Shown here piece after piece: positions 400-30,231 of a stretch of 64,000 nt of DNA. The notes beneath the pieces are model-generated. The model did no database searches. It saw nothing but the letters and a program-made list of their open reading frames with translations, and had not been told where the DNA came from. This stretch comes from Aquilaria yunnanensis (lineage: Eukaryota > Streptophyta > Magnoliopsida > Malvales > Thymelaeaceae), in NCBI GenBank assembly GCA_039654915.1, contig CM077594.1, positions 88,984,893 to 89,048,892 on the forward strand, written 5' to 3'. Positions within the stretch are counted from its first letter, which is position 1; every line of letters starts with the position of its first letter. Made by a program: the position numbers and the translations under genes.

Positions 400-3300
400 A
401 TGGCAGAACAAGCCGAAGGACGTCTCATGGAGATGGAGTCCAAGATTGAAAGTATGTCAGAACAGATCAGACAATTGATGGAATTAATCAAAGGGAAAGC
501 AACTCAAGTCCCCATCAAAGAAGCACAAGATCCCACTTATCCTCCGGGATTCACTCCGCAACGAGTCTCAGTCTAAGAAAACCTGTTTCAAGAACCAGGA
601 CAGTCTGCTAGTGTTCACCTGAAACAAGACACCGTACATGAAGAGAAGAAGATGTTACCAAAAGAAGAAGCAGAATCTCAAAAACTCGAAACGATAAAAA
701 AGAGACTGCGAGCCATTGAAGGAGGTACTATGTTCGGATCTCTCTCAGTAGATGATCTCTGCTTAGTGCCAGACGTCGAAATCCCTTCGGACTTTAAGGT
801 GCCAGATTTCGTAAAATACGATGGAACGAGTGATCCCATCACTCACATCACTTTGTTTCTCAGAAGACTACAACCACTTACCAAAGATGAGAAGGTGTGG
901 ATCGCACTTTTTCAGGAAAGTCTCACAAAATCAGCATTACAGTGGTATCTAAGCCAAGGTCCAAGAAACATAAAAACTTGGAATGACCTTGCTCAGGCCT
1001 TCATCGGCAACTATAAACATGTTATGGACTTAGCTCCGGATCGCCAAACTCTCCAAAACATGGAGAAGAAAAAAACAGAAACTTTTAAGGAATACGCCCA
1101 ACGATGGAGGGACTTAGCTGCACAAGTACAGCCACCCATGACAGAAAGAGAAATGGTCACTTTGTTTGTCTAGACACTGAAATACCCATATTATGACAAA
1201 CTTATTGGCAATGCGGCAACTAACTTCTCCGACGTAGTCATGTCTGGAGAAAGGATCGAGCATGGTATCAGGACCGGGAAGATTACTGAGTCCTTTAGTG
1301 ATCCTATGAAAAGAGGAGGACCATCCAGAAGAAAAGATGAAGAAATACAACAAATCGGACGAGGAAGAGGGATTCCCCTCGTGGGTATCGTGGCTACCGG
1401 ACCTCGCCTATCCTATTCTGCCAACAGGCCCAATTATTATCCTACCAATAGGCCCAATGATTATCCTCCAAATAGGCCCAGTGATTATCTTCCCAATAGA
1501 CCCAACAATTATCCTCTCAACAGGCCTAATCAGTTACGGCCACCTGTTCCGACTCCTCCAATACCTGCACCAAGACCAAGAGAAATTTTCGCACCGATTC
1601 CCATGACTTATACTGAGTTATATCCAAAACTCATCCAGAGCCAACTCATTCGCCCAATTCCCACAAGGCCATTCGAACCCCCATATCCAACATGGTATGA
1701 CCCTAAACTAAATTGCCCATATCATGATGGTGCCGTGGGCCACGGACTCAAAAATTGCATAGCATTGAAGCGTATAGTCCAACAATTAATTGAGTCAAAG
1801 TGGTTGGACTTTTCCGATGAACCAAACGTCACTCATAATCCATTGCCTCCTCATCAAGCCAAACCAGTCAATATGATGGAAGAATACTGGCCGATGAAGA
1901 AAACAGTCAATGATATCATAACCCCTCTTAAGCATGTATATTCATGCCTTGTGAAAGAAGGGATTATCATAGGAAAGTCTTCTGGAAATAAAGAAGTCGA
2001 GCATGAGGAGTGGTGCAACTTTCATAACAGTAAGAGTCATTCTATCCAAGAATGCCCAGAATTCCGTAAAAGTCTACAAAGTCTCATGGACTCCTCCCAA
2101 ATCATCGTTTTTATGTCAGATAAAGAGGATGACGTGAATGTGATAATTAAAGAACAAGAAGTCAATATCATGCCAAGGCCACTAGTCATTCCAATCTCAA
2201 AATCTGCTCTCAAGCCTTTAAGAATTCAAGTTCCAAAGCCATTCCTGTACAAATCAGACAAAACTGTTCCATGGAACTATGGCTATACTTCTAACATCAC
2301 ATCAACTCCGTTAGAAGTTGGGGGCATGACTAGAAGCGGTCGGTGTTATTCTCCCGAGCAAATGAACAAGCTCCAACAAGAGAAGAATGTTACGGATCCA
2401 GCAAATGGACCTATTAACACATCTAAAGAGCAAGAGATGCCTCGAGCAGTAACAGATGAACAAGCTACTGAGTTTCTCAAACTCATAAAGCAAAGTGAAT
2501 ACAGCATCGTGGAGCAGTTGAACCGTCTGCCAGCAAAGATCTCCATACTTTCATTGCTCTTAAGTTCTGATGCCCATCGAGAAGCTCTTCTCAAAGTCCT
2601 GAATAAGGCTTATGTTGAACAAGATATCTCCGTGAACAACTTTGACCACCTTGTCAACAACATCACGGCACAAAATCTCATCACATTCACTGACGATGAG
2701 ATACCAGTAGAAGGAAGGGGTCACTCTAAGGCTCTACATATTTCGATTAAATACAAAGATCGGATTATGGCTAGAGTTCTGATCGACAATGGATCAGCTC
2801 TAAATGTAATGCCATTAGAAACTTTACATAAGATCGGTTTAGACCCATCACACCTCAACAACAGTCATATTGTTGTTCGAGCATTTGACGGAACAAAGAG
2901 AGATGTGGTTGGAGAAATAGAGCTACCAATTGGGATTGGTCCCTGTCTTTTCCATATCACATTCCAAGTCATGGACATTTCTCCATCTTATACTTGTCTA
3001 CTGGGAAGACCATGGATCCATATGGCTGGAGCAATTCCTTCCTCATTACATCAAAAAATGAAATTCATCATTGAAGGAAAGATAATCACAGTCTTTGCTG
3101 AAGAAGACATTCTGCTATCTAGACCTGCGGATGCTCAATATGTTGAGGTCAATGAAAATATACCTGATTGCTCCTTCAGGTCTTTTGAGATTGTCAATGC
3201 TGCTTATGTCAGTGAATATGGAGAAGAACCCGTTCCTAACATCTCTAAAACAAGTCGCATGGTCGCCAAACTCATGATAAAAGGAGGATACTCACCGGGG

Positions 3301-3707
3301 TTAGGTTTGGGACAAGATTTACAAGGAATCCCAGAGCCATTGAAAATATCCGCAAATGAAGGGAAATACGGCCTAGGCTTCACACCGACAAGACATGATA
3401 AAATGAAGGCAATAGCTGAAAATAGAGAAAAGAGGATTGCACGATTAACAGGGCATCCTCTCCAGGAAAGAAATCTGGATATCCCTGAAATCACCGAAAC
3501 GTTCGTGAGTGGTGGTCTCATTCCGCAAAATGACAATGAAGGCAAGCTGACTATCAACATCAACAAGTCTTTTGAAAGTCTTTCTATTCAGGCAATCATC
3601 AGCGATTCACCTGAAGAGGAGGAGCTCGTTCAACCTTGTGGCCCACGGGATGTGCTGAACAATTGGGAGGCGATAGAACTGCCTGTTATAATTGAAAGCT
3701 TTCCAAA
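400..3707 (+). pseudogene. gag-pro: gag-protease ORF of the Tat/Ogre element, two in-frame stops
   Basis: An ATG at 400 opens frame 1. The frame runs to the intron donor at 3708 and is broken by TAA at 574-576 and TAG at 1171-1173. The retrotransposon gag domain lies around 790-1230. A Pro/Asn-rich repeat (NRPN-type units) follows at about 1420-1530, then Cys/His segments. An aspartic protease carries the active-site DNGS motif at about 2784-2795. A Gly-rich G-patch-like segment (GYSPGLGLGQ, about 3286-3315) lies before the donor. It supplies the structural proteins and processing protease. Both stops fit C-to-T changes of CAA and CAG. The reading frame beyond each stop keeps good coding character, so the breaks are recent. 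Confidence 0.88.
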
Positions 3708-3903
3708 GTAATCTAATAGTAAAAACCTCCTAAAGAAAGGTTCAATCAATAGGGTGTAGTCTTTGTTTAAGTGAACCTTTTAGTTATTGCTTTTTATTCC
3801 AATAAAGTTGTGATTTATGCACATTGTAAATAAAGTACCAGTTTGCATCCATCTCATTCGTGCCATTTTTTTTTTCTCTTTCTTTTCTCTCTGGATAATG
3901 CAG
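3708..3903 (+). other. spliceosomal-type intron between gag-pro and RT
   Basis: The donor reads AAA|GTAATC at 3708. The acceptor is a pyrimidine-rich tract ending TGCAG at 3903. Removing these 196 bases joins frame 1 upstream to frame 2 downstream at a split codon, and the downstream frame is open directly from the acceptor. Without splicing, translation stops at TAA 3709-3711, so the unspliced RNA would give gag-pro alone and the spliced RNA the full polyprotein. An intron at this place is known for Ogre elements. No transcript evidence is available here. Confidence 0.8.
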
Positions 3904-6900
3904 ACCCAAAACTCTCTTTGATGACAATGAAAGAATGAACTTTGATAATCCTGTAAACACTACCGACTCGGATGACGAAGATCTTCAAGTATCTCCTGAG
4001 CTATTAAAAATGATTGAGCGAGATGAAAAAGAAAGAGCAACAAGTCAAGAATCAACTGAGGTATTCAACCTGGGAGATAGTCAGGATGTAAAAGAAGTCA
4101 AGATTGGCACTTTATTCCCTCCTGAAGAAAAAGAAGAATTAGTCCATTTATTGAAAGAATATGTGGATGTATTCGCCTGGTCATACCAAGATTTGCCCGG
4201 CTTAAGCTCAGACATAGTACTACACAAAATACCCTTGAAGCCTGGGGCGAAGCCTGTCAGACAGAAGTTACAAAGATTAAAGCCGGAGTTAATCTTAAGA
4301 GTAAAAGACGAGATTCGAAAGCTGTGGGATGCAGGATTCCTTGGGGTCGCTGAATATACAAAATGGGTGGTTAACATTGTCCCAGTCGAAAAGAAAGAAA
4401 GTGGGAAACTAAGAGTTTGTCAGGACTACCGGCCTTTGAACGAAGCCAGTCCTAAAGATAACTTCCCACTTCCTCATATTGATACACTGGTGGATAATAC
4501 CGCAGGAAACTCCTACTTTTCCTTCATGGATGGTTTTTCTGGATACAATCAAATCAAACTTGATCCAGATGACATGATAAAAACTGCTTTTATTACCCTT
4601 TGGGGTACCTTCTACTATAAGGTGATGCCTTTCGGGTTAAAGAATGCTGGTGCTACATATCAAAGAGCCATGGTCACGTTGTTCCATGACATGATGCATA
4701 AAGAAATTGAAGTATATGTGGACGACATGATCGCCAAAACTTTCACTGCTGGGGGGCATCTAAAAGTGCTAAGAAAACTATTCGATAGACTTCGCAAATA
4801 TCAATTGAAGTTGAATCCTGCCAAATGTACTTTTGGAGCCTCTTCAGGAAAGTTATTGGGTTTCATGGTCAGCAAGGACGGGATTCGAGTTGACCCGAGT
4901 AAAGTCAAAGCGATACAAGAAATGCAACCCCCGAAGACTCCAAAACAAGTAAGAAGTTTTCTGGGTAGAATCAACTTCATAGCAAGGTTCATATCACAAT
5001 TGACGTCCAAGTGTGAACCGCTTTTCAAATCACTAAAGAAGAACAATCCGATTGAGTGGAATAACGAATGCCAAGAAGCGTTCGAGAAAATCAAACGATA
5101 TCTATCAAATCCACCAGTCTTGATACCACCTCGATCCGGAGAACCGTTGATTCTATATTTATCCATACAGGATTCTTTATTAGGATCCGTATTGGGTCAA
5201 CGTGATGAGACAAGCAAGAAGGAGCATGCAATTTACTATTTGAGCAAAAAGCTTACCACATATGAAGCTAAATACTCAATAGTAGAAAAGTCCTGTTGTG
5301 CCCTTGCATGGGTAGCACATCGACTATGACACTACATGCTCAACAACACAACATTGCTGATCTCTAAGACTGATCCCATTAAGTACATTTTCGAGAAACC
5401 CGCTTTATCAGGCAGGATTGCAAAATGGCAAATGCTGTTATCTGAATACGACATACAGTATGTCACCCAAAAGGCCGTAAAAGGAAGTGTGATCGCTGAA
5501 TATCTAGCTGATAGAGCATTGGAGGATTATGAGCCCATGAGAATGGACTTTCCTGATGGAGATATAATGACAATAGAACAGGAAGTCGATGAAGAAAATG
5601 AAACATGGAAAATGGCATTCGATGGAGCATCTAATGCTTTGGGACAAGGGATCGGAGCTATACTCATCTCTCCAAGCGGAGAGCAGTTTCCCCTCACAGC
5701 AAAAATTACATTTCCTTGTACCAACAATATAGTAGAGTATGAAGCATGTGCTATGGGACTCCAAATGGCATTGGATTTGAAAGTGCGAGATCTCCGAGTC
5801 TATGGGGATTCCGCATTAGTCATATATCAAATCAATGGAGAATGGGAGACAAGAGATTCAAAATTAATCCCTTACCAAAAGCTTATACTAGACATGACTC
5901 GAAGATTTAACAGTATAAGTTTCCATCATCTTCTAAGGGAAGATAATCAAATCCCAGACGCTTTAGCTACTTTGGCTGCTATGTACAAGATAAGCGACCC
6001 TGAGCATACTCCTGTGTTCGAGATGAAAATAATAGATTCTCCAGCTTATTGCATGAGCATCGAAGAAGAATTGGATGGAAAGCCTTGGTATCATGATATC
6101 AAGAAATACCTCCAAGAACGAACATATCCACTAGAAGCATCAGAAAATGACAAGAAATTTCTACGAAGATTGTCAATGGGTTTTCTTTTAAACCTAGACA
6201 TACTCTACAAGAAAACCCCAGACTCGATGCTACTTCGCTGTGTAGATACTCATGAAGCACGAAAGATCATGGAAGAAGTTCATTCTGGAATATGTGGAGC
6301 ACACACTAGTGGTCATACCATGGCAAGACAAATAATGAGGGCTGGCTACTATTGGCTCACATTGGAAAGTGATTGTATTAATCACGTGAGAAAATGTCAC
6401 AAATGTCAAATATATGCCAACAAGATCCAAGCTCTACCCACCCCTCTTAATGTAACAGCAATACCTTGGCCTTTTGCCATGTGGGGAATTGACGTCATTG
6501 GAGCCATTACCCCTAAAGCTTCCAATGGTCACAAATTCATCCTAGTGGCAATTGACTACTTCACTAAATGGGTAGAAGCTATGTCATATGCAAGTGTGAC
6601 TCAAAAGGTGGTATGCCGGCTCATTAAGAAAGAAATCATTTGTCGCTATGGGCCGCCGGAATGTATCATCTCAGACAATGCCACGAACCTGAACAATGCA
6701 ATGATGCAGACTTTGTGCCGGCAGTTCAAAATCAAACATCTCAATTCGGCACCTTATCGACCAATGATGAATGGTGCAGTAGAAGCGGCCAATAAAAATA
6801 TCAAGAGAATTGTTGAAAAGATGATCGTCACTTACAAGGACTGGCATGAGATGTTACCTTTTGCACTACATGCTTATAGAACTTCTACCCATACTTCTAT

Positions 6901-7333
6901 TGGAGCAACACCTTTTTCTCTGGTATACGGTATGGAGGCTGTATTGCCCATCGAAGTTGAAATTCCTTCATTAAGGGTACTAATGGATACTCAATTAAGA
7001 GAAGCAGAATGGGTCAAAGCTAGATACGAGCAATTAAATCTAATTGATGAAAGAAGAATGATAGCCCTCTGCCATGGGCAACTTTATCAAAGAAGGATGA
7101 TTCGTTCTTACAACAAAAAGGTTCGCCCACGACAATTTCACGAGGGTGACATAGTGCTCAAGAAAATTTTACCCATGCAACATGATTCAAGAGGAAAATG
7201 GACACCAAATTATGACGGGCCATATGTCGTGAAGAAAGCATTTTCAGGAGGGGCACTAATTCTGACAGAAATGGATGGACGAGAATTACCGAAGCCAGTA
7301 AATTCGAATGCAGTAAAGAAATACTTTGCATAA
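3904..7333 (+). pseudogene. pol: pol of the Tat/Ogre element: RT, RNase H, archaeal-type RNase H, integrase
   Basis: Frame 2 runs from the acceptor to TAA 7331-7333 with one internal stop, TGA 5327-5329, in the first RNase H (a likely CGA-to-TGA change). Domains in order: RT with the catalytic YVDDM at 4715-4729; RNase H ending near 5500; an archaeal-type RNase H at about 5600-5990 (FDGAS, EYEAC and GDSAL motifs); an integrase HHCC zinc finger (about 6270-6415); and a DDE core with Asp 6491, Asp 6674 and Glu 6782, which gives 35 residues between the second Asp and the Glu. It would copy RNA into cDNA and insert it. Apart from the stop, all key residues are present, so inactivation looks recent. 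Confidence 0.92.
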
Positions 7334-7943
7334 TGAAGAAATTTTCAAACAGAATGGGAGAAGTGGATACAGGGTTACCAAAGTTGTCAAAGTGAGCTTT
7401 CTTCTCTTACACTTTCATTATCTATCTGTACCCAAGATTTTCATATTACCCATAAATAAAAAGCCAATTTTCTTTAACTTACCTTAGATTCTCACGTTCA
7501 AAATGCTAAAGTCGCTTCTATCCAGTTCTTTTCCTTCAAATCTCACATTCCTACTAGCCTTAAGTGTGCAATAAATTATGACTTTTGAAGGAAGAATAGT
7601 AATAATTAAAACTTAGAAAAAACAAAGACCGTAGATTACTTTGATAAGCTTTATGAATTAAAACAGGTAAGATTGAGGTCCTGCTTTGCGAGCGGCACAG
7701 AACATAGGCTAACAAAGAAGAAGGAGTAACAAATCTTTGGGAGATAGCCTTGGTGGTAGCCTGAATGATCGCTTCAGAAGTCTTAACACGTCCATGTCAG
7801 CAAGAAAGAATCATACTCACGAATATCTCAACAGGGACAATTATCCAGAGAGGCATAAAGTACGAGGCGGACATTAAGGAAATTGAAGCCAAAATTTAAG
7901 AACAAATCAAGGAAAGAAGATTTTTGAAAAGAGTTAGGCTTTT

Positions 7944-8047
7944 GAGACAATGGACAATAGCTGGAAAGCGAGACAATGAACAACAGCTGGAAAGCAAGAC
8001 AATGAACAACAGCTGGAAAGTGAAACAATGGACAACAGTTGGAAAGC
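7944..8047 (+). repeat. 26-bp tandem repeat, 4 copies
   Basis: Four successive 26-bp units of the form GAGACAATGRACAAYAGCTG plus GAAAGC differ at a few positions each. They are non-coding and lie in the 3' region of the retroelement. Confidence 0.85.
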
Positions 8048-8344
8048 ATAAAGAGATTCAACGATAGAAGGCAATTACAAAGAGGATCCAGTAAAGCAAA
8101 GATATAAAAAAATAAATCCATCAGTTACACATGCTCTGCATTCATGCATTTCACATCATGCATGCATGGCATACAGAACAAGGATCAAATGGGAAGCGTA
8201 TCCACCGCACAGTCACAGCAGTATAAGCTGACGTCTCAGTGACATCCGTTTTTACCAATCTACCGCTGGATGCACAGCTGATATAGTGGACCCAGCCCCA
8301 TCAGCAATTCAAGGATAAAGTAGACAATATTGTCAAAATCCTGG

Positions 8345-8570
8345 TAATCAATTCAATAATCGAGGCTACACCGGGATGGACAGAATTGACGCCAGCTTAG
8401 CGGTATCCAAGATAAGAAATAGCTATGGTCAAAAATAAGCGCGGATATCGAGAAATATTGTCGTCGAAAGCAGACAATGGATTCAATAATCAAGGACTGG
8501 ATCAATGTCATGCCTGATGAGATATCAAAGATAAGAAATATCTATGATACTAAAATAAAGTAGGATCCAC
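8345..8570 (+). repeat. degenerate direct duplication, offset about 120-130 bp
   Basis: ATTCAATAATCGAGG at 8351 is matched by ATTCAATAATCAAGG at 8481, and the AAGATAAGAAATA block near 8409 by the one near 8528. The two halves have diverged but keep the same order of blocks. Confidence 0.55.
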
Positions 8571-8681
8571 TTTTCCGGTTAAACGGCGGATACGGTACTC
8601 CGTGACTCTCAAGTCGGTTCTCTCAGTTGCCCATAATAACTGATACCTTCACCCCTTCTTTCTTTTACTTCCTCCTAGAAA

Positions 8682-9230
8682 ATGGATCCTACTTTTTCCG
8701 CCTTGCGAAAGTATTTCCCTTCTCTCCCAATGAACATCCTAAAAAAGATCTACCGAGTTCGCTGTGAACGATTAAGAGCTCTGATGCACAAAGGAATACC
8801 TGAAGATGTACGGTGGTTAATCGAAGCCAAGGTTCGTCTGGCAGGTGAAATCCCAGAGACATTTGCATCTTACATGCCTGGTGTTGGCAAAAGTTCTTAT
8901 GCCAGAAAAAGAAGAGCGAAAAGATTACAAGTCTGCCATAAATGTGGTAGGTGGACTTGTAAAACTAGGTGTCGTTCGTTAGGAATGATCTCCAATAATC
9001 GAGAAGATAAAATACGGTTCATCAAGAATGGCTTGAGTAAGGACTCATTGGATGATATCCAATTGACTCTTGAGACGCATTCTTGTGGATCTGTGCAACG
9101 TGAAATTCTTGATTTATGGAGTATTTTTCATGAAGAACGAGACCGTTACAGTCCCAGGAATCTGACTTTAAACGACCCTGTTTGCCGGTTTGTAAGAAAG
9201 CTGGATAGGAAGCAGATCCTCGACTCATAG
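8682..9230 (+). CDS. Basic Cys-rich protein, accessory ORF copy 1 (182 aa, intact)
   Basis: An uninterrupted intronless ORF begins ATGGATCCT after a C/T-rich leader. An N-terminal helical region (LRKYFP...LKKIY) leads to a strongly basic stretch at residues 70-82 (KSSYARKRRAKRL). A Cys cluster follows directly, C85-x2-C88-x4-C93-x3-C97, then ISNN and an FIKNGL block (residues 103-118). More Cys sit at 28, 135 and 168. Basic stretch plus Cys cluster suggests nuclear import and nucleic-acid binding. The layout recalls the Cys-rich nucleic-acid-binding proteins of carla- and vitiviruses, but with a tighter Cys spacing. That link is recalled motif similarity, not a search result. It lies inside the Tat/Ogre 3' region with two paralogues downstream. 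Function unproven. Confidence 0.72.
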   Translation: MDPTFSALRKYFPSLPMNILKKIYRVRCERLRALMHKGIPEDVRWLIEAKVRLAGEIPETFASYMPGVGKSSYARKRRAKRLQVCHKCGRWTCKTRCRSLGMISNNREDKIRFIKNGLSKDSLDDIQLTLETHSCGSVQREILDLWSIFHEERDRYSPRNLTLNDPVCRFVRKLDRKQILDS

Positions 9231-9519
9231 AAGCCGTTAATGCCGTTACTGGACGTAAAACCAGTGGAAGATGTGAGCCACAGTCACAATTACTGTACAT
9301 ACAGTTTGTTATATTTGGAAAAATTTGCATTTTCTTTTGACAGATGTACATGCTCCCCTAAGTGTAATCGACATGTTATCCCTTTTCATCACTATAAATG
9401 CGTGTTCTTCCTTCTGATTAAACAACAGATAAGATACCCCGTGACTTCTAAAGTCGGTTATTCCAGTTTCCTGCAATAACTGATTCATTTCCCTCTTCTC
9501 TCAAATTCTTCTCTCATCA
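9231..9519 (+). promoter_or_regulatory. inter-ORF spacer with TATA box before copy 2
   Basis: TATAAAT lies at 9393-9399 within the context TTATCCCTTTTCATCAC just upstream. Nearly the same block, again with TATAAAT, precedes copy 3 (10,203-10,225) and the LOG-like ORF (11,368-11,388). A second conserved block, GTGACTTCTAAAGTCGGTT, lies at 9440-9458, about 60-80 bp before the ATG. Repetition of a TATA-bearing block before separate ORFs suggests internal promoters. Confidence 0.5.
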
Positions 9520-10068
9520 ATGGATTCTACTCTTTCTGTACTGCGAAAATACTTTCCTTCCCTCCCACTAAAAGTCCTTAAAAAGATCTACCTTGCTAGA
9601 TGTGAAATAATCAGAGTTTTTACACGCAAAGGCATTCCCGATAATGTGCAGTGGATAATTGAAGCTAAGGTCCGTCTGGCGGGTGAAGTTCCAGATGCAT
9701 TTATGCCCCGCATGCCCGGTTTAGGTAAAAGCCGTTATGCCAAAAGGCGAAGAGCAAAGAGACTAGGCGTGTGTTATAAATGTGGGCGATGGAATTGTAT
9801 TACTAAATGTCGCTCTTTAGGATACATCTCCATAAATCGTGAAGATAAAAGAAAATTCATTAAGAATGGCCTGCGTAAGGAATCTCTGGAAGATATCCAA
9901 GAGACTCTTGAAACGCATTCTTGTGGAAAAGTGCAAGGTGAAATTATCAGTTTATGGAGGACTTACCATAAAGAACGAAACCGTTACAGTCTTGGGAATG
10001 TGACTTTAAACGATCCTGTTTGTCAGTTTGTAAGAAAACTGGATGGGAAGCAAGTCCTCGACTCATAG
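9520..10068 (+). CDS. Basic Cys-rich protein, accessory ORF copy 2 (182 aa, intact)
   Basis: It has the same length as copy 1 (182 codons) and aligns without gaps. The basic block is GKSRYAKRRRAKRL (residues 69-82). The Cys cluster is C85-x2-C88-x4-C93-x3-C97 in the context GVCYKCGRWNCITKC, followed by GYISIN and KFIKNGL. Differences from copy 1 spare the Cys, the basic block and the C-terminal NDPVC..FVRKLD motif, which suggests the product was under constraint after duplication. Of the three copies this one most closely matches the viral Cys-rich protein layout. No signal peptide or membrane segment is visible. Nuclear RNA or DNA binding is an inference from composition. Confidence 0.72.
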   Translation: MDSTLSVLRKYFPSLPLKVLKKIYLARCEIIRVFTRKGIPDNVQWIIEAKVRLAGEVPDAFMPRMPGLGKSRYAKRRRAKRLGVCYKCGRWNCITKCRSLGYISINREDKRKFIKNGLRKESLEDIQETLETHSCGKVQGEIISLWRTYHKERNRYSLGNVTLNDPVCQFVRKLDGKQVLDS

Positions 10069-10284
10069 AAGGCATTGAAGCCATTACTAGATATAAATAA
10101 GTGGAAGATGAGAGCCACAGTCATGATTGCTGTACATATAAGCTGTCATTTTTCTTTTCTTTTAACAATAATGTACTTGCTTCTGTAAGTGTAATTAACA
10201 CATTATCCCTTTCATCACTATAAATATGTGTTAGTTATTTTCGTTTCCTACAATCACTAATTTCTTTCTTTGCCTCCTTCATCA
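10069..10284 (+). promoter_or_regulatory. inter-ORF spacer with TATA box before copy 3
   Basis: TATAAAT is at 10,219-10,225, in the context CATTATCCCTTTCATCAC, 60 bp before the ATG at 10,285. The block matches those at 9,376-9,399 and 11,368-11,388. Upstream, CAGTCATGATTGCTGTACAT (about 10,118) is a single copy of the unit that becomes tandem after copy 3. Confidence 0.5.
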
Positions 10285-10834
10285 ATGGAGTCTTCTCTTT
10301 CCGCCCTACGAAAGTATTTTCCTTCCTTCCCAATAAATGTTCTTAAAAAGATTTATCAAGCTAGATGTGAATGATTCAGAGTATTTATGCACAAAGGCAT
10401 TCCTGATAATGTGCGGTGGCTAATTGAAGCTAAGGTTCTTTCAGCTGGTGAAGTTCCCGAAGCGTTCTTTCCCCGTATGCCCGGCTTTGGTAAAAGCGCT
10501 TATGCCAAAAAAAGAAGAGCAAAGAGGCTAGGCGTTTGTCATAATTGTGGATGGTGGATTTGCGGCAATAAATGTCGTTCTCCAGGAGTGATCACCAGAA
10601 ATCGTAATGATAGAATAAGATTCATTAAGAATGGCTTGCGTAAGAAATCTCTAGAAGATATTCGAGAGGTTCTTGAAGCGCATTCTTGCGGAATAGTGCA
10701 ATTTGAGGTTGTTGGATTATGGATAATTTTCCAAAAAGAAACGAGATCGTTACAGTCTTGGGAATCTGACCCTAAACGACCCTGTTTGCCAGTTTGTGAG
10801 AAAGCTAGATGAGATGCAAATCACCGATTCATAG
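10285..10834 (+). pseudogene. Basic Cys-rich protein, accessory ORF copy 3 (stop plus frameshift)
   Basis: The third tandem paralogue starts ATGGAGTCT. Codon 30 is TGA (10,372-10,374), where copy 1 has CGA, so a C-to-T change is seen directly by comparison. The rest keeps the basic block (KSAYAKKRRAKRL) and all four cluster Cys (CHNCGWWICGNKC). An extra base near 10,740 then shifts the frame, so the usual C-terminus (NDPVC..FVRKLD) is read only in another frame, to TAG at 10,832-10,834. A fragment starting at the internal Met at 10,387 could still be made. Decay here contrasts with the two intact copies. Confidence 0.75.
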
Positions 10835-10884
10835 AAAGCATTGAAGCCATTACTGGACGCAAAGCCAGTGGAAGACGAGGATCA

Positions 10885-11340
10885 AAGTCACGATTACTGT
10901 ACGTGCTAGCTGTCGCTTTTGAAATTTTACTCCCCTTTTGGTAATAATGTATCCACTCCTGACGTGAACCAAAGTCACGATTACTGTACGTGCTAGCTGT
11001 CGCTTTTGAAATTTTCCTCCCCTTTCGGCGATAATGTATCCACTCCTGACATGAGCCATAGTCACGATACTGTACATGCTAGCTGTCGCTTTCGAAATTT
11101 TCCTTCTCCTTTGGCAATAATGTACCCACTCCTGACACGGACTACTGTATATAGCTGCCACTTTTGAAATTTTCCTTCTCTTCCAACAATCACGTACCTA
11201 CTCCTGACGTAAGCTACAGTAGTGACTACTGTACATGCTAGCAGCTATTTTGAAAAATTTCCTCCTCTTTTAACGATAGTGTACCCATACCTGACCAGAG
11301 TCATACTCGTGACTACTGTGAATAGCTGGCAATAATGTAT
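10885..11340 (+). repeat. 87-bp tandem repeat before the LOG-like ORF
   Basis: GTCACGATTACTGTACGTGC at 10,887 recurs at 10,974 and, slightly changed, at 11,061 (87-bp steps). At least three shorter, more degenerate units follow to about 11,340. Single copies of the same unit lie after accessory copies 1 and 2 (about 9,283 and 10,118). The array therefore grew from the 3' flank of the duplicated ORF unit. Confidence 0.75.
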
Positions 11341-11367
11341 CCATTCTTGAAAATAAAATTATTGCCT

Positions 11368-11388
11368 TATCTCTTCATCTCTATAAAT
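11368..11388 (+). promoter_or_regulatory. TATA block before the LOG-like ORF
   Basis: TATCTCTTCATCTCTATAAATA is the third occurrence of the TATA-bearing block. TATAAAT is at 11,382-11,388, only 33 bp before the ATG at 11,422, so any start site would leave a very short leader. Confidence 0.4.
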
Positions 11389-11421
11389 ATATTCTCTTTT
11401 CTCACAAGGATAAGGATAGGA

Positions 11422-12051
11422 ATGGAGAAAACCCCAACTCGTAAATCCTGAAGTATTTGTGTATTTTCTGGGGCTTTTCCTGGAAAAGATGAAGAGTATT
11501 TAAAGGCAGCCAACCATTTGGGTAGAGTATTAGCTGAGCGGAAAATACATTTAGTTTATGGAGGAGGTAGTGTCGGATTAATGGGAGGTGTAGCATCAGC
11601 AGCATCTTTAGGAGGAAGTCAAGTTTTGGGCATCATCCCTGGACCTTTGAAATTTGTTTCTGGGGGCACGATTGGAGAAGAATTAGTGGTTAAAAATTTG
11701 CAAGAGCGTGTGCTACAAATGCTTTTAAATGCTGATGCTTTCATCGCTCTACCCGGCGGTTTTGGCACATTGGGAGAAGTCTTTCAAATTGCTTCCATGG
11801 CCCAACTTAATTTGTATAAGAAACCCATTGGGCTTTTGAATGTTAACAATTTCTTTACAGGTCTGATAGCTTTTATGGATTATGCTATGCAGAAGAATTT
11901 CATATCAAGAGTGGCACGGCGAATCATAATATCCGCAACAACTGCTGAAGAATTGCTAGATAAAATACAAGCTTTTGTTCCTGAACCAGATCCAGCAATG
12001 ATTCAGATAGACTGGACACGACAGTCTTTCCCGACCAGTTCACTCCCATAA
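11422..12051 (+). pseudogene. LOG-like cytokinin riboside 5'-monophosphate phosphoribohydrolase ORF, intronless
   Basis: The frame runs from ATG 11,422 to TAA at 12,049-12,051 (209 codons, near normal LOG length) with one stop, TGA 11,449-11,451 (codon 10). LOG enzymes release active cytokinin bases from their nucleotides. Visible motifs: VYGGGSVGLMG (residues 45-55), GIIP, and the diagnostic PGGFGTLGE (residues 111-119), with an Arg at residue 96. The Lys that normally follows this Arg is Val here, so activity is uncertain. Host LOG genes are split by introns. An intronless copy between the accessory ORFs and the LTR suggests capture through RNA. An N-terminally shortened product could start downstream of the stop. 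The disabled codon fits CGA-to-TGA. Confidence 0.82.
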
Positions 12052-12540
12052 CGGTCCTCTACTCACCCTGTTGAAGTATTGTGGAAGAAAGAAGCGATCT
12101 GATCCATTTTTCTTGTCCTTTAGTTTTATTATCAGCATTTTCTTTCGTGTTTTAGTTTTTCTTTCAGGGAATTTCTTTTTTTATCTTATAAGATAGTCTC
12201 GTCCATGCTGATATTAAAACCATAGGACAATGCCTTTAGGTTGGAATGGCTGAGTAAAGAGTAATTTTTATTGCTCTTGAGACGCATCCTATTAGGTCTA
12301 CTAGGCATAACATTTTGGGATAGTTAAGCTTCAACCTTATTTGGATGACATATCTCTCAAGCGAATCTATATTTACTAAAGAAAATATTAGATGAACCTT
12401 GGATATTGATTCCAAACATCCGTTCCCTTTACATAATTTGTTAGCGATATTGTCATCATCAAGATTCACTCATTTTATCGAAGTCTAAAGTTTCGCACTC
12501 GCCTATTATGCAAATTCACACTTTCGAAGAAAATTATTCC
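12052..12540 (+). other. 3' flank of the LOG-like ORF, no feature seen
   Basis: AT-rich non-coding DNA, including a T-rich stretch near 12,165-12,190. It leads into the hairpin satellite. No ORF or motif can be supported. Confidence 0.5.
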
Positions 12541-12559: not shown

Positions 12560-14640
12560 TAAATTTCGCTTGAGGTTCAAGGAGAGTTCCTTAACCTCAT
12601 TCAATCAAATTTTCAAACGATAGGAAAGTTCCTATCGTCGAGGTTAAAAGAATTTTCCTTAACCTCAAAATCATCAATTTTCCTTCAAACGATAGGAGAG
12701 TTCCTATCGTCAAGGTTCTAAGGTAGGACCCTTAACCTCAAAACAATCAATTTTACTTCAAACGATAGGAGAGTTCCTATCGTCGAGGTTCTAAGGTAGG
12801 ACCCTTAACCTCAAAATCATCAATTTTCCTTCAAACGATAGGAGAGTTCCTATCGTCGAGGTTCTAAGGTAGGACCCTTAACCTCAAAACAATCAATTTT
12901 ACTTCAAACGATAGGAGAGTTCCTATCGTCGAGGTTCTAAGGTAGGACCCTTAACCTCAAAATCATCAATTTTCCTTCAAACGATAGGAGAGTTCCTATC
13001 GTCGAGGTTCTAAGGTACGACCCTTAACCTCAAAATCATCAATTTTCCTTCAAACGATAGGAGAGTTCCTATCGTCGAGGTTCTAAGGTAGGACCCTTAA
13101 CCTCAAAACAATTAATTTTCCTTCAAACGATAGGAGAGTTCCTATCATCGAGGTTCTAAGGTAGGGCCCTTAACCTCAAAATCATCAATCTTCCTTCAAA
13201 CGATGGGAGAGTTCCTATCGTCGAGGTTCTAAGGTAGGACCCTTAACCTCAAAACAATCAATTTTCCTTCAAACGATAGGAGAGTTCCTATCGTCGAGGT
13301 TCTAAAGTAGGACCCCTAACCTCAAAATCATCAATTTTCCTTCAAACGATAGGAGAGTTCCTATCGTCAAGGTTCTAAGGTAGGACCCTTAACCTCAAAA
13401 CAATCAATTTTACTTCAAACGATAGGAGAGTTCCTATCGTCGAGGTTCTAAGGTAGGACCTTTAACCTCAAAATCATCAATTTTCCTTCAAACGATAGGA
13501 GAGTTCCTATCGTCGAGGTTCTAAGGTAGGACCCTTAACCTCAAAACAATTAATTTTACTTCAAACGATAGGAGAGTTCCTATCGTCGAGGTTCTAAGGT
13601 AGGACCCTTAACCTCAAAATCATCAATCTTCCTTCAAACGATGGGAGAGTTCCTATCGTCGAGGTTCTAAGGTAGGACCCTTAACCTCAAAACAATCAAT
13701 TTTCCTTCAAACGATAGGAGAGTTCCTATCGTCGAGGTTCTAAGGTAGGACCCTTAATCTCAAAACAATTAATTTTCCTTCAAACGATAGGAGAGTTCCT
13801 ATCGTCGAGGTTCTAAGGTAGGACCCTTAACCTCAAAACAATCAATTTTACTTCAAACGATAGGAGAGTTCCTATCGTCGAGGTTCTAAGGTAGGACCTT
13901 TAACCTCAAAATCATCAATTTTCCTTCAAACGATAGGAGAGTTCCTATCGTCGAGGTTCTAAGGTAGGACCCTTAACCTCAAAACAATTAATTTTACTTC
14001 AAACGATAGGAGAGTTCCTATCGTCGAGGTTCTAAGGTAGGACCCTTAACCTCAAAATCATCAATTTTCCTTCAAACGATAGGAGAGTTCCTATCGTCGA
14101 GGTTCTAAGGTAGGACCCTTAACCTCAAAATCATCAATTTTCCTTCAAACGATAGGAGAGTTCCTATCGTCGAGGTTCTAAGGTAGGACCCTTAATCTCA
14201 AAACAATTAATTTTCCTTCAAACGATAGGAGAGTTCCTATCGTCGAGGTTCTAAGGTAGGACCCTTAACCTCAAAACAATCAATTTTACTTCAAACGATA
14301 GGAAAGTTCCTATCGTCGAGGTTCTAAGGTAGGACCCTTAACCTCAAAAACAATTAATTTTCCTTCAAACGATAGGAGAGTTCCTATCGTCGAGGTTCTA
14401 AGGTAGGACCCTTAACCTCATTCAAACAATTTTCCTTCAAACGATAGGAGAGTTCCTATCGTCGAGGTTCTAAGGTAGGACCCTTAACCTCAAAACAATC
14501 AATTTTCCTTCAAACGATAGAAGAGTTCCTATTGTCGAGGTTCTAAGGTAGGACCCTTAACCTCAAAATTATCAAATTTTCCCTTCAACGATAGGAGAGT
14601 TCTTATCGCAGAGGCTCTAAAAAAATTTTCCTTAACGACA
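12560..14640 (+). repeat. 73-bp tandem satellite with two hairpins per unit, 28 units
   Basis: The unit core CGATAGGAGAGTTCCTATCG occurs from 12,618 to 14,589-14,608 in steps of 73 bp (first to last 1,971 bp, i.e. 27 steps). The core is an inverted repeat with 8-bp arms around GAGT. The next 28 bp (GAGGTTCTAAGG...CCTTAACCTC, e.g. 12,785-12,812) form a second stem. Spacers often alternate between a CATCAATTTTCC type and an AATCAATTTTAC type, which gives a partial 146-bp higher-order pattern. Tandem repeats in this part of Tat/Ogre elements are known sources of satellite DNA. Confidence 0.93.
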
Positions 14641-14731: not shown

Positions 14732-14744
14732 AAAGGGGGGCAGC
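14732..14744 (+). other. polypurine tract for plus-strand priming
   Basis: AAAGGGGGG at 14,732-14,740, followed by CAGC, lies directly before the LTR start TGTTGACACCC (14,745). Position and composition are those of the plus-strand primer of an LTR retrotransposon. Confidence 0.8.
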
Positions 14745-15251
14745 TGTTGACACCCAATTTCGTCTGGCTTTTTTTTAAAAAAATTTAAAAAAAAAACTAA
14801 TTAAAAAAATTATTATTATTATTATTATTATTGCTAAAAAATTTTAATTATGCTAATTAGTTTAAAATATATTTTTATTTTGAGAAGATTTGATTTAAAA
14901 TAATATATGTGTGAATATGTATCTGTTTGAAATAAAAATAAAATTTCAGAAAAAAATGACAAAAAATTAAAAGTTTGAGGTAAAAATGACAAAATTGAGA
15001 AGTTTCGGACAAAATTGACAAATTCTGAAAGTTTCAGGAGCTTTGGGTAATTTTTCGCGTTAATTTTGGGCCTAAACGGATGTTTCTGGCCCAAATTGAC
15101 AGAAAACGTTAAAATTGTCAAAATCAGAAGCTTCTGAGCTTATCCAGAGCTGGAGTAACGTAAAGGACTGAAACTGTTATTTTACCAATTTAAAAGATAA
15201 GTTTGAGATTTTTTATTAATTTATCCGTCCACAGTTCACCTAAGCTCCTTC

Positions 15252-23050: not shown

Positions 23051-25436
23051 TGTTACGGCCCTCTTAGTGGAAAACTCAACTGAGGGAGGTAAAATTTATT
23101 AAATTCATGGTTTAATACCATATTTGAAGTTAACTAAGCAAGATTAAACATTTTAGACAAGCTCACTAAGTGTCGAAGAGTTATGGCACCAAAAAGAGGT
23201 TTGGGGCAAAATGGTAATTTTTGTGTCTGAAAGTGTTGGGCCGTGTCTTGAGAGTTAAAAATGAGGTTTTATAACATAAATTTTAACTTTACCCAAACTT
23301 AGTTGAGATAAACAAGATTTTACCAAGGTTGACTTAGGCAACCTAAAAAAACCATAGGGGTTATTTGTAACTTTTTTAATACTTTGGTCGCTTGGTTTTA
23401 AAAAGGGGTATAAAACTTGGTAAAGGTGAAGGATGACTGCCATTCCATCTTTAAACCCGATTTCATCCTTCCCTCTACCATTTTTTTATGAATTCATGCC
23501 TAAAATCAAGTATTCTTGGTGAAATTTGAAGCTACCAAGGATTTATATGCAAAAGGGAGCTTGATTCAAAAGGAATTTTATGTTTTTTAAGCTTGGAATC
23601 ACGTTTCCACCCACCCCTATTTTTGATACGAGGTAACAAGTTTGTTCTTGGTGATTTATTGTTTATTAGTTGTTTAGAAGCTTGGGTTTTGGTTAAAAGT
23701 TAATAATTTGGTGTTATATGTCTTTGATTACTTGGAACTTAGGAAGAACTTGTGGAACTTGGTTTGTGTGGAAGAATAGCTTCAATCTTGCTTGTGGCTT
23801 GAATTTGAGGTAAGGGAGATATATTTTCAAGCTTAATTAATACTATTGGAATGAGTTTGTTTGATGAATGTAAGCAATTCTAGCAATAACATTAGTTTTT
23901 GGGCAAGGTTAGTTAATGGTGGACTATAAGGTTTGTGATGATTGGAATGATGCTTAAATGCATCATAGGATGACTTGTGATAGTTGGTTGTGATCTATGC
24001 AACTTGTTTTATATGTATGTAAAGTTTGGAGGTTAACTAAATATGTTTGATATGTTTGGTAAGTGTCCGAAGTTCATAGCAGCAAAACTTGAAGTTTTAT
24101 TAGTTTTCGCAATATTGGCGACGCGTCGCCAATAAACACTAATTTCCACAACGTGTCATCATTACCATAAAAATTGACAGCTCGTTAGCATGGTAACTGA
24201 AAATTTTAAATTTTGCTAGGAAGGTCGAGGGGAGGCCTAAGGTGTTCTTGGGGTACCTTGATGTCTAATCATCCTGGGGGTACTCTGAGTCTTCCAAAAC
24301 TCCTCCAAGACCTAAAAGTTTTTTTTTGAATTTATGTAGCTTATGGTTACTTCCACCATAAGCAAGGAAATTAGTTTTCAATGGATCATAACTAGGTATC
24401 ACTAGGTTAGGTAAAGAGGTTTAGTACCCTTGGCGACCTAGCCGTGCAATAAGGCATGAGGTTGCAAGGTGAGACCTTAGTGCACCTACTCTACAAGGTC
24501 TTTATGGCCTAGGGTAAAATAGTCCCACCATAGTGCCCCTGTACAACATAAGGGAGAGCTCCAATTGGTGATTTATCACTAGTTACACTAGCAAGCTAAG
24601 CTTGCTAGAGGACAAGGCTATGCCTTGTGGTTCAAGGACTAGGTAGAGGACAAGTCCCAAGGGACTGAAATGTATGCACATAGGTTAAGCCTCACGCTGT
24701 ACGAGCTCAAAACAGATTACATATGATAATATATGTGTTGCCTTTAGCATTTTGCTTGCAAGTGAAGTTCTTACTGAGAATTACAAATATTCTCACTCCC
24801 TTATCTTATGTTGTGCAGTTTCTGACCGTATGGAGCTCGATAACTGCTAAGGGTTGTCGTGATAGTCTTTTGTCGCAGGTATATTGTTATGGGGATCTTG
24901 ATGATTCTAGTTTTCTTTGTTATTTTTTGGTGAAGTAACAGTACTAACTATAGTATTTTCTTGGCCACAAAGAGTAGTAGTACATGGAAAGACTTTTACA
25001 ACTCGCCATTGGGACTCATATTCAAGGTGGGAGTTAGATAAGAGGATCTCAGTAGAAGCTGTCTATGCTTAGTTACCTCCCATATCTATGTTTAGAGCTT
25101 TAGACTCAAGGGTTGCTCTTGGATGAGGGTCATTAGTCTACTTTTATTGAATGCCCTTACATGGTTATTATGTGTAGTAATGATAATACAAATTTTGATT
25201 ATGTGTGCTTTGACTATTTGAACTTGATTTCTATGAAAAGAGCTTTGGCCAAGGAAATGTTTTACGGTTTCTATGTACTCAAGTCAAAGCTGAATGAGCA
25301 TACATCTTGAATTTTCTAGGTTAATCAACTATTTTCATGAAGCTTTAATTTGTGCACATATATAATTAGCCAATTACAACCACCGTGAGATTTGTTCTCA
25401 CAGGCTTCCTAAGCAAAGCCAAGGGCGGCTATGTCA
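23051..25436 (+). repeat. left LTR of the chromovirus, 2386 bp
   Basis: It starts TGTTACGGCC and ends GGCTATGTCA directly before GTT and the primer-binding site. It aligns over its whole length with 30,248-31,926 plus about 37,321-38,066. Confidence 0.92.
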
Positions 25437-25439
25437 GTT

Positions 25440-25452
25440 TGGTATTAGAGCC
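25440..25452 (+). other. primer-binding site (initiator tRNA-Met type)
   Basis: TGGTATTAGAGCC, three bases after the LTR, matches the usual TGGTATCAGAGC complement of initiator tRNA-Met with one C-to-T change. Confidence 0.85.
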
Positions 25453-25566
25453 AGGTTCATAGACATTGGAGGCTAGGATTGAGATCTCATTTAAAGTCCA
25501 AATGCTAGGATAATTAGTACTAACCAACACTTATGGAATGTCGTCTGGCTTTGGTTACAGGTTGCT

Positions 25567-26760
25567 ATGGTTGACACAAGGTCAGGAGCTTCCGGAAGAG
25601 CTAGGGAACCTGGTGAAGGTTCTAGTGATCCAGTTGTGGCAAGGTTAGATGAGATATCCAGAGTGCTTCAAGGGATGACACAGACCTTGGTGCAAGTGGC
25701 ACAAGGCATGACCACTATCATCAATGAATTATTTCAAGACCAAGAGAATAGAGGGGTTGCACAGGAGGATGATGACCAAGGGGATTATCCACCCTAAGGT
25801 CATGATAGGTACACTGATCGTCGGCAAATGCCTAAGGCTCATGAAAGTCAAGACCGTGTTTATGAGCATGGGGAGGAGCAGGAAGTTATTGAAGCTCGAA
25901 GGGGCGGAGAAACCCCACATCAGATGAGATTGCTTGAGAAATTCAAGATGATTGACCCACCAAGTTTTGATGGGTTTGGTGACCTTGTGAAGGCAGAGGA
26001 TTGGTTGAATAGGATGAATCAACTCTTTACTTGCGGAGGTTATGAGTCGGAGCGGAGAATGGCCTTAGTACTTTTTTTTTTAGAAGGAGGGCTAGCTTAT
26101 GGTGGGATGAAGTTCTAGAAATGCTAAAGAAAAGTAATGGAAATCGACCAGAGCATAAGAGAAAGGTACTCAAGTTGTCAGACTTCGAGAAGACGTTTCA
26201 ACAAGAGTATATTAGTGAGGTAGCTCAAGAATAAATGAGGATTCAGTTTGAAAATCTCACCTAATGAGAGATGTCTGTAAGAGACTATGAGCAGCGCTAC
26301 AACTTGCTCATTCGGTATGCTCCATACATGGCTAAAAATGATGAGCTCAAGGCCAAAAAATTCATCCAAGGCCTTAAGCCTGTGCTTCGGAGATGCATGG
26401 AAATGGTGGACATTCGGAGCTATCACCAAATGGTTCAAAAAGCATTAGCTCTGGAGAGGGAGTTTGAAGACTCAAAGATTCAAAGTAAGAAGGTAGAGGT
26501 TGGGCCATCCAACCTAGGAAAGAATGCTGGAAAATGTCCAGTGGAAAGAAAGGTGGTCGAGACTTAATGGTCAGCCAAGAGGAAGAAAAGGGGCTTATAC
26601 CCTAAGTGTAGAATATTTCGTGGCTCTAAGCCATGTACTTTGGGAACTAACATTTGCAACAATTATGGACAAAGTGATCATTGGGCTAGGAAATGCCCAC
26701 AAGCCTGACCCTTGCCGGGTCCGCTTAGGAATCTGCCCCTTACACTCCTTGCCATAGGAA
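25567..26760 (+). pseudogene. gag: chromovirus gag remnant
   Basis: It starts at ATG 25,567 (MVDTRSGAS...) and continues in pieces at 25,828-26,118 and 26,271-26,567, with stops and frame changes between. A gag core is clear (FKMIDPPSFDGFGD..KAEDWLN and the VRDYEQRYNLLIRYAP region). A CCHC knuckle lies near 26,655-26,700, in which the second Cys codon reads TAT (Tyr). Cannot form a functional capsid protein. Confidence 0.82.
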
Positions 26761-26771
26761 ATTGACCTGGT

Positions 26772-26987
26772 GTGGCCACAACAGTAATTGAGCCGAGGGT
26801 TTTCACCTTGGCTAGTCAAGTGATTAAAGAGCAAATAGCCGTTCGAGGTAACTTTACATTCCAAAATGGTACTGTTAGAGTACTATTTGATACTGGTGCT
26901 ACTCTTTTTATGAGATCGTCTACCTTGGTAGATAGATTGAAATTGCAGCGTGATATCTCCAATAAGTTGAAACTCATTAGAATTTAA
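26772..26987 (+). pseudogene. chromovirus aspartic protease remnant
   Basis: The open stretch contains VRVLFDTGATLFM, with the DTGA active-site motif of retroelement proteases at about 26,889-26,900. It is cut by a stop at 26,985-26,987. Related sequence (NLVLGMDWLSKYKA-like) continues to about 27,130 in broken frame. Confidence 0.75.
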
Positions 26988-27185
26988 TGGAGTTTTATTA
27001 TGGCCAACAAGTTAGTTAGTAAGTCTCCTTTGCAGTTAGGCAACCATGACTTCGCTTGTGAATTATGGGTTATAGAATTAAGGTCATATAACCTAGTGTT
27101 GGGAATGGATTGGCTAAGTAAGTATAAGGCATAAATTGATTGTGCTAATCACTTAGTCGATGTTACTAATGCTCAGGGAGCTAGA

Positions 27186-29770: not shown

Positions 29771-29774
29771 ATAT

Positions 29775-30203
29775 TTGAGGAAACGAGATATAAGTTTTGA
29801 AGTTGGCGATAAAATACTTTTCAAAGTAGCTCCTATGAAGGGAGTAGCTCGGTTTGGGCAGAAGGGTAAGCTGGCCCCTAGGTATATTGGACCCTATCAG
29901 ATCTTGGAAAAAGTAGAGAAAGCTGCATATCGGTTGGCGTTACCACCTCACTTGTTCCAAGTGCACAACGTGTTTCACGTTAGTCTATTGAGGAAGTGCA
30001 TAGTTGATCTGGGACAAGTAATTAACCCATCAGTAGTTCCCATCCAGGAGAAACCTGTTAAAATCCTTGATAGGCAAGTTAGGAAACTCCGAACCAAGTG
30101 GATTCCAATGGTTAAGATCCTTTGGTCAAACCATAGTGAGGAGAAAGCTAATTGGGAGATGGAGCAAGATATGCTGAAAAGGTTTCCTAGTGATTTTCCT
30201 TAG
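29775..30203 (+). pseudogene. chromovirus integrase C-terminus with chromodomain
   Basis: This open stretch follows a broken integrase. It contains the GPY/F-type module (GKLAPRYIGPYQILEKV, residues 34-50 of the piece), then the HNVFHVSLLRK block. The end resembles a chromodomain (ILDRQVRKLR..IPMVKILWSNHSEEKANWEME). A chromodomain here defines chromoviruses and is thought to direct insertion to marked chromatin. The start is only the first in-frame Met. Confidence 0.85.
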
Positions 30204-30231
30204 TTGCAGCGAAATTTGGAGGACCAAATTT

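What the first reader, a model, noticed from the sequence alone, without database searches (positions are those of the whole stretch)
8682..12051. Retrotransposon cargo: Cys-rich RNA-virus-like proteins plus a cytokinin-activating enzyme
Seen: three tandem 182-codon ORFs with a basic stretch and Cys cluster, followed by an intronless LOG-like ORF, all between pol and the 3' LTR of one Tat/Ogre element. Known: some carlavirus Cys-rich proteins act as nuclear regulators that promote host cell proliferation, and LOG enzymes release active cytokinin. Inference: the element may have carried a module that pushes host cells to divide or blocks silencing, which would help a retroelement multiply. I know of no described plant retroelement with this combination.
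Basis: partly seen in the sequence, partly recalled or inferred. Interest (0 to 1): 0.92.

Follow-up and report, generated by a model that had tools for sequence, protein, structure and literature searches.

The report
Virus-like gene cassette in plant retrotransposon
Behind the replication genes of a decayed plant jumping gene lie three tandem copies (two intact) of a small protein related to proteins of plant RNA viruses, then a damaged hormone-enzyme-like gene; relatives of the two occur together in single annotated gene models of other plants, and the set would likely help the element evade host silencing.

Summary
Behind pol of a decayed Tat-type Ty3/gypsy element lie three tandem copies of a 182-codon ORF (copies 1-2 intact, copy 3 broken), then a LONELY GUY (LOG) frame with a stop at codon 10. 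All three copies pass Pfam cut-offs for Viral_NABP and Carla_C4.

It is not a one-off. 225 database proteins match copy 1. Gene models joining NABP and LOG occur in Rhamnella, two Orobanche species and Citrus, by alignment also Acer. A second DNA copy, L001, has NABP behind an integrase of another element type, without the extra RNase H: NABPs 70% identical, integrase regions 31%, suggesting exchange between element lineages. dN/dS is 0.15.

LOG-type domains in Gypsy elements were known (PMC9289625). I saw no report of NABP or the pair among papers listed by ten searches.

Mechanism, inferred: NABP counters silencing or acts in the nucleus, like carlavirus CRPs. The cytokinin step is weaker: a motif lysine is replaced in 118 of 121 LOG rows, and the catalytic motif is altered in some Citrus and Orobanche models. 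New variant of a known kind.

The parts
652..3711 (+). gag and protease frame of the Tat-type element, with a G-patch domain; in-frame stop at 1171-1173
   Evidence: (PF03732, PF01585)
3712..3903 (+). intron-like gap between protease and RT frames, pyrimidine tract then CAG (Ogre-like, inferred)
   Evidence: sequence shown
3935..5329 (+). reverse transcriptase and first RNase H
   Evidence: PF00078, PF17919
5336..7333 (+). end of the first RNase H, second RNase H (aRH), integrase
   Evidence: PF17917 E 0.041, PF13456, PF17921, PF00665
8571..8681 (+). leader of NABP copy 1, 81 of 111 bases identical to L001 (stretch set by the BLAST match)
8682..9230 (+). NABP-like ORF, copy 1, intact, 182 codons
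9231..9296 (+). conserved stretch right behind the stop codon, 56 of 66 bases identical to L001
9393..9398 (+). TATA-like box ahead of NABP copy 2
9520..10068 (+). NABP-like ORF, copy 2, intact, 182 codons
10219..10224 (+). TATA-like box ahead of NABP copy 3
10285..10834 (+). NABP-like copy 3, broken by a stop and a frameshift
10874..11307 (+). four to five copies of a ~69-87 bp repeat ahead of LOG
   Evidence: D9, D10
11382..11387 (+). TATA-like box ahead of LOG, in a block resembling that of copy 3
11422..12051 (+). LOG-type frame, stop at codon 10, then open (listed ORF 11518-12051)
12572..14620 (+). 73-bp tandem array between LOG and the putative 3' LTR
   Evidence: (D1)
14732..14740 (+). 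purine tract, putative PPT
14745..14754 (+). putative first bases of the 3' LTR (TGTTGACACC); the end of the LTR was not found
   Evidence: inferred

Best explanation
This cassette lies behind pol of a decayed Tat-type plant LTR retrotransposon and is likely part of it: it holds three tandem copies (two intact) of a protein that matches the nucleic-acid-binding proteins (NABPs) of carlaviruses, then a LOG-type frame with an early stop, and it likely helps the element multiply by weakening host RNA silencing. Shown: the order, the Pfam matches, dN/dS well below 1 for NABP, gene models joining NABP and LOG in other plants, and NABP behind a different type of integrase in L001. Inferred: NABP folds around zinc with its Cys cluster, enters the nucleus by its basic stretch, binds nucleic acid, and acts as a silencing suppressor or transcription regulator, as viral CRPs do. 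Inferred: copies 2 and 3 and LOG are transcribed from their own TATA-type promoters, so the cargo can be made apart from Gag-Pol. Inferred: NABP moved between Tat-type and Athila-type elements, because NABP is 70% identical between carriers whose integrase regions are 31% identical. The LOG is predicted to be a nucleotide phosphoribohydrolase in carriers that keep its catalytic motif; whether it still releases cytokinin is open.
For: Pfam: PF05515 and PF01623 above cut-off in 3 of 3 copies. 225 homologs at E<=1e-3 among 286 candidates; 49 of the 120 listed are exactly 182 aa. Purifying selection (Nei-Gojobori): copy 1/2 0.26, 1/3 0.20, 2/3 0.36; copy 1 against L001 0.151, bootstrap 95% 0.088-0.239. 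In a tree of 57 chosen rows P0001 pairs with copy 1 (99/93) and P0004 with copy 3 (100/99), so the duplications predate the split of this copy from those that encode P0001 and P0004. Joined gene models: 9 of 120 listed proteins carry a NABP and a LOG-type Pfam label, from Rhamnella, Orobanche gracilis, O. hederae and Citrus x changshan-huyou; P0257 and P0281 (Acer) show the pair by alignment. By hmmscan, 5 of 10 proteins given pass a NABP-type and a LOG-type cut-off. L001 has integrase then NABP, no aRH between RNase H and integrase; two Rhamnella models (P0074, P0245) begin with an integrase end 70-72% identical to that of L001 and 24-26% to the window's. Close LOG relatives look multi-copy and dispersed, e.g. 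many Reevesia pubescens loci and Orobanche clusters of 244 and 328 member sequences; that these are retroelement copies is inferred. Two of 9 LOG-bearing contigs of 4-100 kb have exactly the length of one of 20 NABP-bearing contigs (0.013 expected, 11 of 100,000 jittered sets reach 2). CRP functions: PMC12172455 passages.
Against: No expression or activity data. The AlphaFold2 model of NABP is poor (mean pLDDT 54), so the zinc fold is unconfirmed; 17 of 120 listed relatives lack the Cys pattern. The viral match is distant (E about 1e-5 to 1e-7) and covers residues ~34-120 of 182 only. L001 is one 3.3-kb contig from a metagenome bin named for a bacterium, evidently misbinned plant DNA, host unknown; its NABP falls just short of the Carla_C4 cut-off (20.4 against 20.9) though above that of Viral_NABP. 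That it is Athila-type rests on the missing aRH and on a recalled integrase motif. L001 shows no LOG in the 983 bases behind NABP. Vertical inheritance with a very slowly changing NABP is not excluded. LOG: lysine of MHxRK kept in 3 of 121 rows; PGGxGTxxE missing in 12 of 120 listed relatives and altered in P0246, P0256, P0275, P0280, P0282. Copy 1 has no TATAWA box between 8104 and its ATG, and its upstream does not resemble that of LOG. Broken copy 3 and the stop in LOG fit a decaying passenger in this copy.
Confidence: 0.5

Rival explanations
1. NABP is a nucleocapsid- or Rev-like helper that binds the element's own RNA (export, packaging or translation) rather than a suppressor of host silencing; the conserved leader and post-stop stretch would be its binding sites.
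For: Post-stop stretch 56/66 identical between window copy 1 and L001, more than CDS third positions (108/182; Fisher p 1.3e-4), leader 81/111 (p 0.023); a 7-bp hairpin with one both-sided change is predicted behind the stop and a 10-bp one in the leader; the domain matched is nucleic-acid binding.
Against: Stretches were chosen after seeing the alignment; four DNA sequences only; some pairs are broken in one or another sequence; no Rfam match. Viral CRPs are reported mainly as silencing suppressors and pathogenicity factors in the passages seen.
Confidence: 0.25
2. Passenger cargo: captured genes carried along without benefit to the element.
For: This copy has stops in gag, pol, NABP copy 3 and LOG; LOG motif altered in some relatives.
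Against: NABP dN/dS 0.15-0.36; 182-aa length in 49 of 120 listed relatives; paired relatives of copies 1 and 3.
Confidence: 0.12
3. Pro-proliferation module: NABP and LOG together push host cells to divide.
For: CVB p12 is reported to induce hyperplasia (introduction of PMC12172455, passage); the LOG family regulates cytokinin activity (PMC9289625, section 12); PGGxGTxxE kept in 108 of 120 listed LOG relatives and in the window.
Against: MHxRK lysine replaced in 118 of 121 rows; catalytic motif altered in some Citrus and Orobanche pairs; in L001 no LOG lies in the 983 bases behind NABP.
Confidence: 0.13

Closest known systems
LOG (YgdH)-bearing Gypsy elements of Citrus and Populus trichocarpa (PMC9289625, section 12 and passages; it cites Steinbauerova 2011, which I have not seen)
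   Same: LOG-type domain in Gypsy LTR retrotransposons of eudicots; Citrus and Populus also hold NABP relatives here
   Different: No NABP, no NABP-LOG pair and no exchange between lineages in the text seen; the 2011 abstract, as I recall it, names two Athila-like elements with LOGL4 similarity
Carlavirus CRP/NABP (Pfam PF01623, PF05515)
   Same: Basic stretch and Cys cluster; above Pfam cut-offs
   Different: Behind pol of an LTR retrotransposon, tandem copies, extra N- and C-terminal parts; residues ~34-120 align
Orchid Tat/Ogre-type elements with an AlkB m6A demethylase ORF (PMC9289625, passages and section 12)
   Same: Tat element with a separate accessory ORF; AlkB, like NABP, is also found in Alpha- and Betaflexiviridae
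   Different: Different protein; found in Phalaenopsis only there; activity shown in vitro there
Insect retrotransposons with RNA-virus-related SF1 helicase (PMC6338049, passages)
   Same: RNA-virus-related accessory domain with suggested anti-silencing role
   Different: Different domain and hosts; part of the polyprotein (title)
Retand elements with antisense TRP28 ORFs (PMC11963269, abstract and passages)
   Same: Long pol-3'LTR region, tandem repeats, putative nucleic-acid-binding accessory ORF
   Different: Here the ORFs are sense; three antisense ORFs tested gave no TRP28 match

Membership tests
Tat clade of Ty3/gypsy | additional RNase H (aRH) in pol | tested here: met
   PF13456 E 1e-19 between RT/RNase H and integrase; criterion from PMC6317226 passages
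Ogre lineage | gag-pro and pol separated by a putative intron; aRH between RH and INT | tested here: inconclusive
   192-nt gap with frame change and acceptor-like CAG; aRH position fits Ogre or Retand; no splice data
Ogre lineage | plant mobile domain in an extra ORF (57% of Ogre elements) | tested here: inconclusive
   69-codon ORF end at 3-212 has no PMD match; what lies ahead of it is outside the window
Retand lineage | antisense TRP28 ORF between pol and 3' LTR | tested here: not met
   three antisense ORFs of 97-109 codons, none matches PF04195; the copy is decayed
LTR retrotransposon with both LTRs | two LTRs and target duplication | not testable with these tools
   5' LTR outside the window; own genome not reached
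Viral NABP / Carla_C4 | Pfam curated score | tested here: met
   3 of 3 window copies above both cut-offs; L001 above one of the two
Viral NABP / Carla_C4 | zinc-finger fold | tested here: inconclusive
   AlphaFold2 mean pLDDT 54; no fold search run on it
Viral NABP / Carla_C4 | silencing suppression, nuclear action | not testable with these tools
   needs bench work
LOG phosphoribohydrolase | PGGxGTxxE motif | tested here: met
   PGGFGTLGE in the window; 108 of 120 listed relatives
LOG phosphoribohydrolase | MHxRK motif (name recalled; RK in 5 of 5 solved chains shown, two of them near-identical; 14 matched) | tested here: not met
   window LQERV; lysine in 3 of 121 rows
Athila clade (for L001) | no aRH; Athila-type integrase end | tested here: inconclusive
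   no aRH seen in L001; the Athila motif is recalled, no reference was compared

The most novel reading that the evidence does not exclude
Plant LTR retrotransposons of at least two clades share a mobile virulence-like cassette: a NABP gene of the kind used by carlaviruses, with its own conserved leader and 3' element, often paired with a remodelled LOG, swapped between Tat-type and Athila-type carriers across eudicots to subdue silencing and reprogramme host cells.
Probability: 0.3. Interest if true: 0.9.

Novelty: new variant of a known kind. Interest (0 to 1): 0.72.

Why it matters
If true, plant retrotransposons carry the same kind of counter-defence gene as plant RNA viruses, and pass it between clades that split long ago. 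That gives a concrete, testable answer to what extra ORFs of Tat and Athila elements are for. It may also explain why such ORFs were missed: one large survey took only ORFs of at least 250 codons (PMC6317226, passage), and these have about 182 and 215. It raises the question whether viruses took NABP from retroelements or the reverse.

Tried and rejected
Nested insertion of the cargo: no LTR-like repeat pair found inside the element. Viral contigs: two scans, no relative. Plasmids: no match. Rfam: no match up to E 1 in 7330-12500 or L001. Solved structures for NABP: none at E<=10. AlphaFold2 of NABP: too poor for a fold search, none run. Stop-codon readthrough of NABP: left open rather than rejected. 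An in-frame extension recurs in P0060, P0261 and P0281; differences by codon position are 1, 6, 5 (copy 1/L001, dN/dS 0.69), which is not coding-like, but 2, 8, 12 for copy 3/L001 (0.13), and dN/dS is 0.16 for copy 1/3, which is; copy 2 is out of frame there. A shared promoter with the LTR: no resemblance. Host name: not found; no plant genome collection was on hand.
Full report
Anatomy. The first 14.7 kb of the window hold most of one Ty3/gypsy element: gag (652 on), a protease frame with a G-patch domain to 3711, an intron-like gap, RT and RNase H (3935-5329), a second RNase H and integrase (5336-7333). The second RNase H between RNase H and integrase marks it as Tat, of the Ogre or Retand type by the criteria of PMC6317226 (passages). 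The antisense TRP28 ORF of Retand was not found in three antisense ORFs tested, and the intron-like gap recalls the putative intron of Ogre (PMC9289625 passage). A purine tract and TGTTGACACC at 14745 mark the likely start of the 3' LTR. The 5' LTR is outside the window and the own genome could not be reached (ten unanswered requests).

Cargo. Between pol and that point lie three tandem copies of a NABP-like ORF (spacing 838 and 765 bp). Copies 1 and 2 are intact with 182 codons; copy 3 (10285-10834) is broken by a stop at codon 30 and a frameshift near 10740. All three pass the Pfam cut-offs for Viral_NABP (E 2.1e-6, 1.5e-7, 5.1e-6) and Carla_C4 (E 2.3e-6, 1.8e-5, 4.8e-5). A LOG-type frame follows, with a stop at codon 10 and otherwise open to 12051. 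Its closest protein relative, P0121 (92% identity over 87% of the query), is open in the corresponding N-terminal part, so copies open there exist.

Not a one-off. Copy 1 finds 225 proteins at E<=1e-3 among 286 candidates (120 listed), 49 of the 120 exactly 182 aa, 103 of 120 with C-x2-C-x4-C-x3-C. Named hosts among those listed include Rhamnella, Populus and Xanthoceras. A search with the joined Rhamnella model P0095 (251 of 1616 candidates, 120 listed) shows 9 models labelled with both a NABP and a LOG-type family, from Rhamnella, Orobanche gracilis, O. hederae and Citrus; P0257 (Citrus) and P0281 (Acer) add two by alignment. Own hmmscan of ten such or related proteins: five pass a NABP-type and a LOG-type cut-off (P0242, P0244, P0246, P0275, P0280); P0256 falls just short on Carla_C4; P0257 and P0269 pass neither; P0074 passes only Carla_C4; P0245 gave no family. 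These are automatic gene models that probably splice two neighbouring ORFs together; what they show is order and closeness. LOG relatives closest to the window look multi-copy and dispersed (3609 hits, 120 listed).

Second DNA copy. L001 is a 3,330-base contig binned with a bacterial genome and evidently plant DNA. It holds RNase H, integrase without an aRH, then a 186-codon NABP ORF 192 bases behind the integrase stop, on the same strand. NABP is 70% identical to copy 1 over 181 residues; the integrase region is 31% identical over 451 aligned columns. Two Rhamnella gene models carry an integrase end like that of L001 (70-72%) and unlike the window's (24-26%) in front of NABP. I read this as exchange of NABP between element clades. 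Slow evolution of NABP with vertical inheritance is not excluded, but would need NABP to be far more conserved than integrase.

Selection. Nei-Gojobori dN/dS: copies 1/2 0.26, 1/3 0.20, 2/3 0.36; copy 1/L001 0.151 (0.088-0.239), copy 2/L001 0.202 (0.112-0.328), copy 3/L001 0.260 (0.125-0.433). dS exceeds 1 for copy 1/3 and for copies 1 and 2 with L001, so these are rough. In a 57-row tree copy 1 pairs with P0001 and copy 3 with P0004, all five in one clade at 100/99: the duplications are older than the split from the copies that encode those proteins. LOG selection was not measured, since no second LOG DNA was on hand.

Regulation. TATAAA boxes lie 127, 66 and 40 bases ahead of copies 2 and 3 and LOG. 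The block ahead of LOG resembles that ahead of copy 3 (score 58; best of 1000 shuffles 46) and weakly that of copy 2 (36; 17 of 1000 shuffles reach it), not that of copy 1 (18; 984 of 1000). The 66 bases behind the NABP stop are 56/66 identical to L001, against 108/182 at CDS third positions (Fisher p 1.3e-4), and the leader is 81/111 (p 0.023); both stretches were chosen after seeing the alignment. This suggests a cis-acting element; small hairpins with one both-sided change each in the part concerned are predicted from four sequences. Whether the post-stop stretch is also translated is open.

LOG. The catalytic PGGxGTxxE is present in the window and in 108 of 120 listed relatives. The lysine following the arginine, present in 5 of 5 solved chains shown, is M in 55, I in 47, L in 14, V in 2 and K in 3 of 121 rows. 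In NABP-LOG gene models of Citrus (P0246, P0256) and one Orobanche group (P0275, P0280, P0282) the catalytic motif is altered; in P0242, P0244 and P0281 it is kept. So the LOG of this set looks like a remodelled branch, and cytokinin release should not be assumed.

Prior knowledge. LOG (YgdH) in Citrus and Populus LTR-element consensuses is in PMC9289625 (section 12). Retand accessory ORFs: PMC11963269 (abstract, passages). RNA-virus-like helicases in insect retrotransposons: PMC6338049 (passages). CRP functions: PMC12172455 (passages). Ten searches showed no report of NABP or the pair in retroelements among the papers listed; lists were capped at 20 of up to 934 papers, judged by title and abstract start, and supplements and most subscription papers were not searched. 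PMC7264820 on additional ORFs had no occurrence of LOG, cytokinin or carla in its main text. Verdict: a recurring accessory cassette with NABP under purifying selection; anti-silencing is the likeliest role, by analogy; the proliferation idea stays open.

Noticed in passing
window 9231-9296; L001 2348-2413: Stretch right behind the NABP stop codon is more conserved than CDS third positions; three relatives (P0060, P0261, P0281) read on in frame with Q, W or Y in place of the stop.
   Followed up: partly
L001 1591-1690: By eye, a pyrimidine tract ending in CTGCAG lies just ahead of the conserved NABP leader, as for a spliced env-like mRNA; no TATA box seen there.
   Followed up: no
window 12572-14620: 73-bp tandem array of some 27 units or more between LOG and the putative 3' LTR.
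   Followed up: no
window 23051-31924: Second, separate LTR element (RT at 27186-28016) with a repeat pair 23051-24702 / 30248-31924 of 88% identity.
   Followed up: no
window 50499-51479: Long ORF of a chalcone/stilbene synthase (PF00195, PF02797).
   Followed up: no
window 62550-63305, minus strand: ORF that looks like a plant UDP-glycosyltransferase end (by eye).
   Followed up: no
P0275, P0280, P0282; P0246, P0256: LOG part kept as a long open frame next to NABP although its catalytic motif is altered: possible pseudoenzyme.
   Followed up: partly
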